64,000 nucleotides of DNA from Arenicellaceae bacterium. GTDB taxonomy: Bacteria; Pseudomonadota; Gammaproteobacteria; Arenicellales; Arenicellaceae. Under the pieces are notes generated by a model that ran no database searches, was not told the DNA's origin, and was given only the letters and a program-made list of their open reading frames with translations. Positions 32,479 through 35,525 of this stretch are shown in pieces; the first letter of the stretch is position 1, and the number at the start of each line of letters is the position of its first letter. The position numbers and the translations under genes are program-made. The stretch covers positions 1 through 64,000 of the forward strand of contig JAQWNC010000003.1 of the NCBI GenBank assembly GCA_029246505.1, read 5' to 3'.

Positions 32479-33156
32479 CTAGCTAGCGTCTAGATCAATT
32501 TCATTTATAAGTTGAATGCCTTCGGCACGTGAATTTCCGACCGACTTTGCTACTGGATAAAACGATAACTCTGGCGGCTGGGCTTCCATCAATAAGTCTT
32601 TGGCATCTTTGGTTTGTTCGTTCATCCATTGCTCGGCCGCTTCCAAGGTTAATATCACGGGCATCCTGGGGTGAATACTAGCCAGCTGTTGGTTCGCAGG
32701 TTTGGTAATTATACTACAGGATAAAAGTGGGGCCTCGGTTGGGTCACCCTGCGCGAGCCAATTATCGTACAGCCCTGCCGTTACCAGCCCGGTATTTGCC
32801 TCACCACGTATGAAGTAGGGCTGCTTGCTTCCTTTAGGTCCGGTCCATTCGTAATAGCCCAACATAGGTATTAAACAATGTTGCGATTTTCCCCAGGCGG
32901 ACCTGAATGCAGGTTTTTCGTCGACAGTTTCCAATCGTGCATTAAACGTAGAATATTGGGTCGTAAACTCTTTAGCCCAAGCTGGCACTAACCCCCAGCG
33001 CATAGCTTCTCCTTTTGGGTTTTTGAATGCAGCCACCGGCTTGCTAGGCGCCACATTGTAACTAGCGCGGTAATCGGCTCTTTGCACTGGCCACTCATCA
33101 ATAAGCTTGGCCCAGGCTACCATTTTTGGAACATGATCTACGTAACGTCCACACAT
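32479..33156 (-). CDS. SRAP-domain protein (YedK/HMCES type)
   Basis: Forms a stable thiazolidine crosslink with abasic sites in single-stranded DNA, shielding them during replication. The 225 residues begin MCGRYV, giving the essential catalytic Cys2 after Met removal; the Asn (SYNVAPSKP), the acid in LGYYEWTG, and the catalytic His in IHPRMPVIL are all present. Complete and likely functional. Lies 50 bases downstream of the Fic-like gene in the same direction. Confidence 0.95.
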   Translation of the reverse strand: MCGRYVDHVPKMVAWAKLIDEWPVQRADYRASYNVAPSKPVAAFKNPKGEAMRWGLVPAWAKEFTTQYSTFNARLETVDEKPAFRSAWGKSQHCLIPMLGYYEWTGPKGSKQPYFIRGEANTGLVTAGLYDNWLAQGDPTEAPLLSCSIITKPANQQLASIHPRMPVILTLEAAEQWMNEQTKDAKDLLMEAQPPELSFYPVAKSVGNSRAEGIQLINEIDLDAS

Positions 33157-33205
33157 TGGCTTAGCTTAGCAAAATGCTGCGACTAGCGCTTTTCAAGCAA
33201 TAAGC

Positions 33206-34276
33206 CTAAGCGAACATGTCGATTGTTTTGCCGTAACACTCTGCGCAGAAATTTGCGAATGGCAGTATTGCAGATTCATCTGGCCAAATACCTGTAGCCT
33301 TGGTTAACTGGCCCAATTCGAATTGATAATCGGCTATCAGCTCTAAATATTCTCGTCGTCGATTTTGGTCGATCAACAACGGCGGTAAGCCTGCTTTAAG
33401 TAAAAGCATATTAGATACTAGCCGGGCCATTTGTCCATTAGCGTCGCTAAATGGCGCAATATGCGCTATGCCTAGGTGTAACTGAGCGTAGATCATATGC
33501 GCATTGTCTAGAGTAAGCTGGTTTAGGCCTGTGCGATTGATCACCCTGATCAACGATTGCATTAAACTACTCACCTGATCTGGAGCAGCGTACTCGATGA
33601 GCACAGCTTTGCCTTTAGTGGTGACCGAGGACAAATAATTTGGTTCTTGCTTCCAGGCACCTATTGGCTGATAACCATTGGCATTCAAATCTGCTTGCAC
33701 GGCTAAATCGCCTTTAAGAGCTTTATGCAGTTCGAATAGAGCCAATTCGCTTAACGGCGCGTTCACCAAGCCATATAACAACTCTATAGCCTGCGCATGG
33801 CCGAGTACTTGTTGATGTTCAGATTCTGATTTGCCTTCCACAGTCAGATCCAATTCCAAAATCGCATAAGTATCGCCTGGTGTGAGTGCGCAATTATCGG
33901 CTGAACCTTCTACTACATTCCCAATGGCTACTACATTTCCAATAACACCCTCAAGAGCAAGAGATGAGTGGGTCCATAAGTCACGCAATTGGGATAGCAG
34001 GACTTTACGTTTCGCGGAAGGGAGATGCTGAATAAATACAAGTTCCTCACCTGTCGGCTGCTCAAAGTTTATCCACCGGTACTTGGTTCCACGTTTTTGT
34101 CCGGTGCGTCTGAGCTGACCTATACTCGACCACGCAACTAACCAGCGTCGAAGTGTGCGTTCTGGAACTTTTATACCCGCTCCTTGCGATCGAAGCATTA
34201 TTTCCGGCAAGCCTAGGGGTCTGTTTAAGGCCTCTATGATAGATAATACGGCCTTTTTTTTCATAATTTTATCCAT
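33206..34276 (-). CDS. Fic-domain protein with degenerate active site
   Basis: A 356-residue protein with an N-terminal winged-helix-like segment (about 5-70; LPEIMLRSQGAGIKVPERTLRRWL) and a Fic fold. The inhibitory-helix pattern S-x-x-x-E-G is met by SLALEG near 103-108. The catalytic loop, normally HPFx(D/E)GNGRxxR, reads HIAPFSDANGQMAR near 270-283: Ala replaces the catalytic His, Ala replaces Gly and Gln replaces the first Arg. AMP transfer by the usual mechanism therefore looks impossible. It is intact over its length, which argues for a retained non-canonical role. Neighbours are SRAP (downstream) and a divergent PepSY gene. Confidence 0.85.
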   Translation of the reverse strand: MDKIMKKKAVLSIIEALNRPLGLPEIMLRSQGAGIKVPERTLRRWLVAWSSIGQLRRTGQKRGTKYRWINFEQPTGEELVFIQHLPSAKRKVLLSQLRDLWTHSSLALEGVIGNVVAIGNVVEGSADNCALTPGDTYAILELDLTVEGKSESEHQQVLGHAQAIELLYGLVNAPLSELALFELHKALKGDLAVQADLNANGYQPIGAWKQEPNYLSSVTTKGKAVLIEYAAPDQVSSLMQSLIRVINRTGLNQLTLDNAHMIYAQLHLGIAHIAPFSDANGQMARLVSNMLLLKAGLPPLLIDQNRRREYLELIADYQFELGQLTKATGIWPDESAILPFANFCAECYGKTIDMFA

Positions 34277-34448
34277 ATTCGGCTAATAATAGTTATTTAC
34301 GGCCACAATATCAAGTTATGGAACTTACAAACGTAAGATTTTAAGTTTCTAGGGTAGCAACTTGCTATCGATCACCCAAAGCCAACATAAGCCAAATAAA
34401 TAGAATTATGGTGATTTATTAAGGTCTTTATTCCTTTATCATGCAGCC

Positions 34449-35525
34449 ATGAAAATTATCTCCTTTTGTCGATCCGTGCATGCTTGGGGCGGATTCATTT
34501 TGGCACTACTTATTTTGCTTATTTCACTGACTGGTTCGCTGTTGGTTTGGAAAAAAGAATATTTATGGCTTACCGTACCCGAATCACGCGCGCCAACACA
34601 GATAACTGCCGAACTTGCGGCCACGGTTGCCGATGCCGCTCAGGCCCACTTTGGGCTGGACGTGTTGCTATTGCAGTTTGGCCACGAAAATCTGGCCCTG
34701 CATAAAGTATATATGCCCGATAGCCAATACGCCCTGCTAGACAACACAGGGGTAATCATAGACCAGTGGCGTTTAAACGACAGACCAGAAGAATGGTTAT
34801 ACGACCTGCACCACCGATTACTGCTGGGTAACACTGGCCTAAATATTGCGGGAATATCTGCACTAGCGATGCTGCTGCTGGTGTGTTTTGGTTTAATTGC
34901 CTGGTGGCCAAGCCGAAAATTATTTAACTGGCGATTATGGATTAGCGGCTGGCCGCGTAATAAATTATTAACCACACACCGTAACATTGGCGTTGTAGCT
35001 GCCCTGCCCACCTGTGTTTTGTTGTTAACCGGCGCTGTGCTTAGCTTTCCGTTCCAGGCACAAAAATTACTGCTAACGGATTATCACTATTCACAAGAGT
35101 ATAGTGATTTGTATACCGTTGGACTCGATGAGCTAAATGGCACCGAAAACGGTGAGCGACTCGTAGCTTTTAAACGCGCACAAGCAAGTTTCCCCGAGGG
35201 CGCTATACGTTCTGTAGAGCCGCCGTCGAGAATGTCGGGATATCGGCTTATAGGTATGCAGCAAAATGCTAACGAATGGCACCAAAGTGGCTTAAGCCGG
35301 GTTTATATAGCCCCGGACACTGGCTACATGGATATGCGACTGGATGCCGCCAGCCTGTCGATGGTCGAGCAGTTATATAACCTGAGCTACCCACTGCATA
35401 CTGCTAAGGCGGACCGATTGTGGTACCGAGTTGTGGTATTTATTTTCGGCATTGCGATGTGCCTCCTTAGCTTTTTAGGCTGCGTAAGTTTTGTGAAAAA
35501 ACTTACTAAAACGCCAAGCACCTAG
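34449..35525 (+). CDS. PepSY-associated membrane protein
   Basis: A 358-residue inner-membrane protein with four helices: about 9-33, 137-155, 180-200 and 325-348. The first helix starts with RSVHAWGGFILALLILL and the segment WLYDLHHRLLLGNTGL lies before the second; the paired His in LHHRL and HRNIG after it resemble haem- or metal-binding positions in PepSY_TM proteins, which are often ferric reductases or parts of siderophore uptake. Reading is consistent with that family; no uptake gene stands near. Ends 11 bases before the convergent GST gene. Confidence 0.82.
   Translation: MKIISFCRSVHAWGGFILALLILLISLTGSLLVWKKEYLWLTVPESRAPTQITAELAATVADAAQAHFGLDVLLLQFGHENLALHKVYMPDSQYALLDNTGVIIDQWRLNDRPEEWLYDLHHRLLLGNTGLNIAGISALAMLLLVCFGLIAWWPSRKLFNWRLWISGWPRNKLLTTHRNIGVVAALPTCVLLLTGAVLSFPFQAQKLLLTDYHYSQEYSDLYTVGLDELNGTENGERLVAFKRAQASFPEGAIRSVEPPSRMSGYRLIGMQQNANEWHQSGLSRVYIAPDTGYMDMRLDAASLSMVEQLYNLSYPLHTAKADRLWYRVVVFIFGIAMCLLSFLGCVSFVKKLTKTPST

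What the first reader, a model, noticed from the sequence alone, without database searches (positions are those of the whole stretch)
33206..34276. Fic protein with the catalytic histidine lost but inhibitory helix kept
The core loop reads HIAPFSDANGQMAR: the positions of catalytic His, the second Gly and first Arg hold Ala, Ala and Gln. The S-x-x-x-E-G inhibitory pattern (SLALEG) and the whole reading frame are intact. A kept regulator with a dead active site suggests a binding or antagonist role, or a changed chemistry like that of some Fic relatives that transfer phosphocholine or phosphate.
Basis: partly seen in the sequence, partly recalled or inferred. Interest (0 to 1): 0.58.

Follow-up and report, generated by a model that had tools for sequence, protein, structure and literature searches.

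The report
Dead Fic enzyme with DNA-binding head
A marine bacterium carries an intact gene for a Fic protein whose catalytic site has been lost while its DNA-binding head, folded core and own promoter signals look preserved; it is most likely a leftover self-regulator of a former protein-modifying toxin gene, one of several losses of this gene among its relatives.

Summary
The lock letters S105, E109, R285 remain, but an 18-aa insertion follows EG and the next conserved Asn is Cys. The protein is an N-terminal winged-helix (wHTH)-Fic fusion. All 6 full-length orthologues found have the intact motif. In the window's order (109 genomes) the gene occurs in 4: intact in one, dead here, cut to the 76-aa wHTH in the same-genus sister, 5' half lost plus His to Leu in the fourth. 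The window copy deviates at 17 of 94 columns invariant in the others, with the excess in the first half of the Fic domain and in the motif; wHTH and C-terminal core are constrained as in active relatives, overall rate is ordinary, and the predicted fold is kept. Upstream lies TGGCCGTA between -35 and -10, a repeat shared by most orthologues; a DNA-only scan also found it before four other wHTH-Fic genes. So: a catalytically dead, probably still DNA-binding autoregulator, or early decay. Changed chemistry is unlikely. Stable His-less wHTH-Fics (Q-clade) and FIC-HTH autorepressors (CccR) are known, so this is a new variant of a known kind.

The parts
33206..34276 (-). wHTH-Fic ORF, 356 aa, with degenerate FIC motif
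   Evidence: Pfam Fic 35.6 bits against cut-off 24
34067..34276 (-). N-terminal winged-helix domain (residues 1-70; helices 3-17, 23-32, 39-51, strands 55-58, 65-68)
   Evidence: AF2 model; conserved in 6 orthologues and in the 76-aa remnant of G001
33209..34036 (-). Fic domain with preceding helix (residues 81-356)
   Evidence: alignment, AF2 and Foldseek to 3cuc, TM 0.75 by target length
33947..33964 (-). S105-L-A-L-E109-G110, S-x-x-x-E-G inhibitory motif letters
33893..33946 (-). 18-aa in-frame insertion (111-128) directly after EG, holding two 18-nt tandem units; predicted disordered
33704..33721 (-). 6-aa in-frame insertion (residues 186-191) absent from orthologues
33422..33457 (-). FIC motif A274-P-F-S-D-A279-N-G-Q282-M-A-R285 (H, first G and first R lost)
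34309..34314 (-). -35-like hexamer TTGATA
   Evidence: 10 of 12 with the -10, best of 6 found; 2.8 expected in shuffles
34298..34305 (-). TGGCCGTA, putative operator copy between -35 and -10
34286..34291 (-). -10-like hexamer TATTAT, 9 nt before the ATG
34278..34285 (-). TAGCCGAA, second operator copy with 2 mismatches, 20 nt from the first
34247..34254 (-). AGGCCGTA, intragenic one-mismatch copy

Best explanation
The gene descends from an active, self-contained wHTH-Fic AMP-transferase that repressed its own promoter through the N-terminal wHTH and held its own active site shut with the S-x-x-x-E-G helix. On the window's lineage catalysis was lost: His (base), first Gly (phosphate loop) and first Arg are gone. 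What remains under visible constraint is the wHTH, the helical core and the S105-E109-R285 lock, which would now hold the helix in place structurally. The most likely present activity is non-catalytic: the protein binds TGGCCGTA at its own promoter and represses itself, with the Fic part as an inert or ligand-binding scaffold. Shown here: the sequence changes, the orthologues, the syntenic and related losses, the promoter repeats, the predicted fold. Inferred: loss of AMPylation, DNA binding, autorepression, a benefit to the cell.
For: Motif intact in 6 of 6 full-length wHTH-Fic orthologues and 5 of 5 wHTH-less near relatives, three positions lost here. Ala274 is GCG, differing from both His codons at all three bases, and a His-to-Ala change needs at least two. 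Constraint is uneven: wHTH 2 of 14 invariant columns deviate (other six pooled 10 of 82), C-half of Fic outside the motif 2 of 28, both I/L swaps (others 12 of 168), but first half of Fic 10 of 42 (others 7 of 199, P 7e-5) and motif 3 of 10. No overall rate excess over L048 outside the motif, e.g. 39 against 33 unique changes with L043 as outgroup. Both insertions are in frame; under purely neutral substitution an uninterrupted ORF survives in 17% to 4% of simulations for 8 to 14 excess deviations, indels not counted. AF2 pLDDT 85.2, similar order of elements as the active orthologue L043 (90.3), both with 3cuc on top. TGGCCGTA lies between -35 and -10 and the repeat recurs at most orthologue promoters; a pattern scan of 369 genomes with no protein input hit 8 genomes, in 4 of them directly before a wHTH-Fic gene or its remnant. 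Precedents: CccR, FIC plus HTH, represses its own promoter, and its S59, E63 and R203 form the lock (PMC9755527 passages); BepC's actin phenotype survives loss of the catalytic residues (PMC7842960 passages).
Against: 14 of 84 invariant columns outside the motif deviate, above the other six pooled (29 of 449; P 0.003, whose printed label says 446 by a slip of mine), and deviations are not significantly concentrated in the motif (P 0.26). The same-genus sister has lost the whole Fic domain and G028 is broken. The second operator copy has decayed (2 mismatches); the window promoter scores only 2 in the generic repeat test, like controls; TGGCCGTA is not enriched in the window as a whole (3 found, 1.9 expected). 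The operator motif was first seen in the same promoters later counted. No DNA-binding or expression data. His to Ala left some activity in IbpA according to PMC4454073.
Confidence: 0.52

Rival explanations
1. Early pseudogene: the Fic part is under no selection and simply has not yet met a stop codon; the wHTH may or may not be kept.
For: 3 of 4 copies in the order have lost the Fic function: window motif, G001 cut to 76 aa, G028 with the 5' half missing next to a transposase ORF plus His to Leu. Excess deviations outside the motif. Two insertions, one beside the inhibitory helix. The second operator copy has decayed. A broken wHTH-Fic also stands in G402.
Against: Ordinary overall rate and normal constraint in wHTH and C-half core; intact frame and in-frame insertions; confident fold; promoter hexamers present.
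Confidence: 0.34
2. Changed chemistry: the altered loop transfers or removes another group, as in AnkX, AvrAC or Doc.
For: D278, N280, G281 and R285 remain, and divergent Fic motifs are linked to other chemistries (PMC4454073 section 6; PMC8401265 passages).
Against: The catalytic base is gone and no replacement residue is conserved, since no orthologue found shares the change. The changes spread to the Fic N-half. No match to those families over their cut-offs.
Confidence: 0.05
3. Antagonist: the dead Fic binds and blocks the other Fic of the genome or its target.
For: The genome has one other Fic, 176 aa with HPFPNRNGRHVR. Fic proteins can act as antitoxins for other Fics (Fic1 for the degenerate Fic2 of C. 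fetus, PMC5651007 passages).
Against: The other Fic is on another contig, of the mobile mystery protein B type by my reading, and unlike this one in sequence: a search with the window protein returned only itself in this genome. Neighbours of wHTH-Fic genes are not conserved, so no partner is seen.
Confidence: 0.05

Closest known systems
Active-motif wHTH-Fic orthologues (L048, L043, L042, L044, L045, L046)
   Same: Same architecture, wHTH plus Fic, 42-49% identity, inhibitory motif, promoter repeats in most
   Different: All six have HPFxDGNGRxxR, EGN, and neither insertion
Q-clade wHTH-Fic proteins (motif Qx[F/Y]x[D/E][G/V]NKR, as in clade D2 of PMC4454073)
   Same: N-terminal wHTH, S-x-x-x-E-G-N and second Arg kept, catalytic His replaced
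   Different: His is Gln, loop is NKR, and the state is conserved in 30 of 30 loci looked at; the window protein groups with the His clade at 42-49% identity
CccR of Yersinia pseudotuberculosis (PMC9755527)
   Same: One protein with FIC and HTH; represses its own promoter at sites near -35 and -10; S-E-R lock
   Different: HTH is C-terminal, FIC active, operator palindromic
BepC and other Bartonella Beps with non-canonical motifs (PMC7842960, PMC8401265)
   Same: Fic fold kept while motif residues are dispensable or lost; BepC works by binding
   Different: Secreted effectors with a BID domain, no wHTH known to me; BepC keeps the His

Membership tests
Fic/Doc (Fido) fold family, PF02661 | Pfam Fic match over the curated cut-off | tested here: met
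   35.6 bits against 24
Fic/Doc (Fido) fold family, PF02661 | Fic helical core | tested here: met
   AF2 pLDDT 85.2; 3cuc on top, TM by target 0.75-0.76
Fic AMP-transferase (active) | HxFx(D/E)GNGRxxR | tested here: not met
   H274A, G279A, R282Q
Fic AMP-transferase (active) | AMP transfer | not testable with these tools
   needs an enzyme assay
Class II Fic (own N-terminal inhibitory helix) | S/T-x-x-x-E-G/N before the Fic core, facing the second Arg | tested here: inconclusive
   S105, E109, G110 and R285 present, but T106L, an 18-aa insertion and N129C go with it
wHTH-Fic orthologue group (His clade) | N-terminal wHTH plus Fic, nearest relatives in that group | tested here: met
   49% to L048, L043 and L042; tree places it beside L048, support 86/88
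Q-clade (D2-like) Fic | Gln for His and NKR loop | tested here: not met
   Ala and NGQ
Fic-HTH autorepressor (CccR-like) | candidate operator copies at the own promoter | tested here: met
   TGGCCGTA between -35 and -10, shared with relatives
Fic-HTH autorepressor (CccR-like) | protein binds that DNA and represses | not testable with these tools
   needs EMSA and a reporter
Phosphocholine, UMP or phosphate-transferring Fic (AnkX, AvrAC, Doc) | motif His and family match over cut-off | tested here: not met
   His absent; XopAC 20.5 bits against 450, mob_myst_B 16.6 against 124.4, no AnkX or Doc match listed for it up to E 0.1
Pseudogene | broken frame or uniform loss of constraint | tested here: not met
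   intact ORF; constraint lost only in part; an early stage is not excluded

The most novel reading that the evidence does not exclude
wHTH-Fic proteins are a family of single-gene, self-repressing regulators with lineage-specific repeat operators and, in the His clade, probably leaderless transcripts. In this family the Fic site has repeatedly been turned from an enzyme into a non-catalytic sensor or scaffold domain (stably in the Q-clade, freshly in the window), with the S-E-Arg lock kept as the switch that links ligand state to DNA binding.
Probability: 0.2. Interest if true: 0.65.

Novelty: new variant of a known kind. Interest (0 to 1): 0.42.

Why it matters
Groups of Fic proteins lack the catalytic His and their role is not known (PMC4454073 section 6). 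A gene caught after a loss of the site, beside orthologues with the intact motif that share its DNA-binding head and promoter repeat, lets one ask what the Fic fold and its so-called inhibitory helix do without catalysis. The promoter repeats make one answer directly testable: that wHTH-Fic proteins repress themselves. If the decay rival is right instead, the case shows how readily such genes lose their catalytic half.

Tried and rejected
Orthologues sharing A274 and Q282: none seen among 61 relatives, 369 class, 109 order and 398 phylum genomes (overlapping sets; not every weak Fic match was inspected), nor in genome contigs (one search found none, with a wHTH-only query that cannot favour any FIC motif, gave 10 loci, 6 of them full-length His-clade orthologues, all with intact motif). 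Plasmids: 4 records at 33-38% identity, motifs not inspected; phages: none at the limit set.

Shared loss with G028 (H to L): not favoured, because the C-terminal tree puts L004 with L042 and L043 rather than with the window, though support is weak, and the codons differ.

Regulon of the wHTH: in the own genome only the window's own promoter fits the 20-nt-spaced double repeat with up to 2 mismatches (the reversed control gave 2 hits); the 21-nt-spaced exact hit at C20 lies inside a long ORF.

Conserved partner gene: neighbours differ in the loci looked at. dN/dS with the sister: only 68 codons alignable and synonymous sites near saturation (NG86 dN 0.42, dS 1.95), so not decisive. Motif concentration of changes: not significant (P 0.26). 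Pfam gave no wHTH family for the window protein; its wHTH rests on the AF2 model and the orthologues.

Full report
What is there. The ORF at 33206-34276 (-) encodes 356 aa without a stop. A search with it returns only itself in its 2.64 Mb genome, which holds one other Fic gene on another contig. The protein has an N-terminal winged helix (residues 1-70) and a Fic domain (81-356) by AF2 (mean pLDDT 85.2, pTM 0.77), with the Fic structure 3cuc as best PDB match (TM 0.75-0.76 by target length). The orthologue L043, with intact motif, gives a similar order of elements and the same best match (pLDDT 90.3; TM 0.78-0.79). These models come from a 14-row alignment.

The motif. Aligned with six full-length wHTH-Fic orthologues the loop shows H274A, G279A (first Gly) and R282Q; P275, F276, D278, N280, G281 and R285 are kept. 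All six orthologues, and five relatives without the wHTH, keep HPFxDGNGRxxR. Ala274 is GCG, so all three bases of the His codon differ. S105, E109 and R285 remain; in CccR S59 and E63 bond with R203 to keep ATP out (PMC9755527 passages; that these positions correspond to S105, E109 and R285 is my reading). Directly after EG there is an 18-aa insertion containing a tandem 18-nt repeat, predicted disordered, and the following conserved Asn is Cys; a second, 6-aa insertion sits at 186-191.

Loss in relatives. The order has 109 genomes held; four carry the gene at E 1e-15: the window (dead motif), G444 (intact), G001 of the same genus and G028. In G001 the syntenic place beside the PepSY-like gene has only the first 76 aa, followed by an unrelated gene. 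In G028 only residues 187-327 of the L043 query match, next to a transposase ORF, with His replaced by Leu, and the 5' half was not found in the assembly. So Fic function looks lost in three of four copies, by different routes.

Decay or constraint. Of 94 columns invariant in the other six, the window deviates at 17 (3 of 10 in the motif, 14 of 84 outside); the others deviate at 2 to 9 of 79 to 86 in the same leave-one-out test. The excess lies in the first half of the Fic domain (10 of 42 against 7 of 199 pooled, P 7e-5) and the motif; the wHTH (2 of 14 against 10 of 82) and the C-half outside the motif (2 of 28, both I/L exchanges, against 12 of 168) are as in the relatives. Relative-rate counts show no overall acceleration over L048 with five outgroups (smallest P 0.23 for the whole protein outside the motif; N-half smallest P 0.08). 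The full-length tree gives the window a longer end branch than L048 (1.01 against 0.66), the C-terminal tree does not (0.68 against 0.72). A neutral substitution simulation leaves the frame open in 17% (8 excess deviations) to 4% (14) of runs without counting indels. I read this as a shift of constraint away from catalysis rather than uniform decay, but the sample is small and decay keeps a third of my belief.

Promoter. The best sigma-70-like site found in 33100-34500 is on the minus strand, TTGATA-17-TATTAT at 34314-34286, and TGGCCGTA lies between the two hexamers. A copy with two mismatches follows 20 nt downstream and a one-mismatch copy lies in the gene. The same octamer, exact or with one mismatch, occurs 2-3 times in -110 to +45 of six of the eight His-clade genes counted (window, G001, L043, L042, L048, L044; at most 1 of 500 shuffles reaches this in each); L045 and L046 instead carry TTGTCCGTA once each, with 21 and 7 of 500 shuffles reaching it. 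Because the motif was seen in these promoters first, the independent test is the pattern scan: TGGCCGTA-N11-13-TGGCCGTA exact in 369 class genomes gave 17 places in 8 genomes; the reversed control gave 14 hits. Seven of the 17 places, in four genomes (G174, G248, G110, G402), lie directly before a wHTH-Fic gene (in G402 a wHTH ORF whose Fic part looks broken); the other ten are a tandem array in G144 (7) and single sites in G000, G183 and G299. A generic repeat score was at least 4 in 24 of 43 wHTH-Fic promoters, 4 of 177 control upstream regions and 5 of 860 shuffles; rows are related, at least one gene is counted twice, and the window itself scores only 2. In all eight His-clade genes a -10-like hexamer lies 5-9 nt before the start used (for L042 my start was one codon early), which predicts leaderless transcripts.

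Family setting. Q-clade wHTH-Fics, in which Gln replaces His, were found in 38 of 369 class genomes at E 1e-50. The 30 loci kept all carry the Q motif and the S-x-x-x-E-G-N motif; they were picked by similarity to one Q-clade protein. A Q motif clade of unknown function was described as D2, there said to be usually single-domain (PMC4454073 section 6). So 'His lost, lock kept, wHTH kept' exists as a stable state, which makes a retained role for the window protein believable, though the window protein belongs to the His clade and lost its site separately.

Literature seen. PMC4454073 (passages and section 6), PMC7842960, PMC5651007, PMC8401265, PMC9755527, PMC2686095, PMC2701414 and PMC10628234 (passages). 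Fusions of Fic with HTH domains that may regulate fic expression were noted in 2009 (PMC2686095), and CccR shows it for a C-terminal HTH. In the listings of searches I saw no title on N-terminal wHTH-Fic operators; that is the extent of my novelty check, in an open-access library only.

Verdict. A real Fic with a lost catalytic site and an intact frame; most likely a non-catalytic autoregulator left after the enzyme was shed, with early decay as the main rival. New variant of a known kind.

Noticed in passing
L012, L014, L020, L049, L058-L087 (promoters of Q-clade genes): Many Q-clade wHTH-Fic genes are preceded by clusters of lineage-specific 8-9 bp repeats (such as GCGACAAATA, TTGCGCATA, TGGCGTAA, TATGTCCTAA), suggesting an operator that changes with the wHTH.
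   Followed up: partly
L012, L014, L058-L065 and the eight His-clade genes: A TATAAT-like box 5-9 nt before the ATG predicts leaderless transcripts: 18 of 45 wHTH-Fic starts scanned had one within 12 nt.
   Followed up: partly
L036:5560-5790: The same-genus sister G001 keeps a free-standing 76-aa wHTH with four TGGCCGTA copies around it (three upstream, one inside) after loss of the Fic domain; possibly a solo repressor.
   Followed up: partly
L002:1354-1884: Second Fic gene of the genome, 176 aa, HPFPNRNGRHVR, resembling mobile mystery protein B (my reading of the motif).
   Followed up: no
L091:1520-2419: A wHTH-Fic locus in G402 with the double TGGCCGTA repeat and a Fic part that looks broken into separate ORFs.
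   Followed up: no
window 33893-33946: The 18-aa insertion is built from a near-perfect 18-nt tandem repeat (ATTGGRAATGTAGTAG twice) found nowhere else in the window at up to 2 mismatches.
   Followed up: partly
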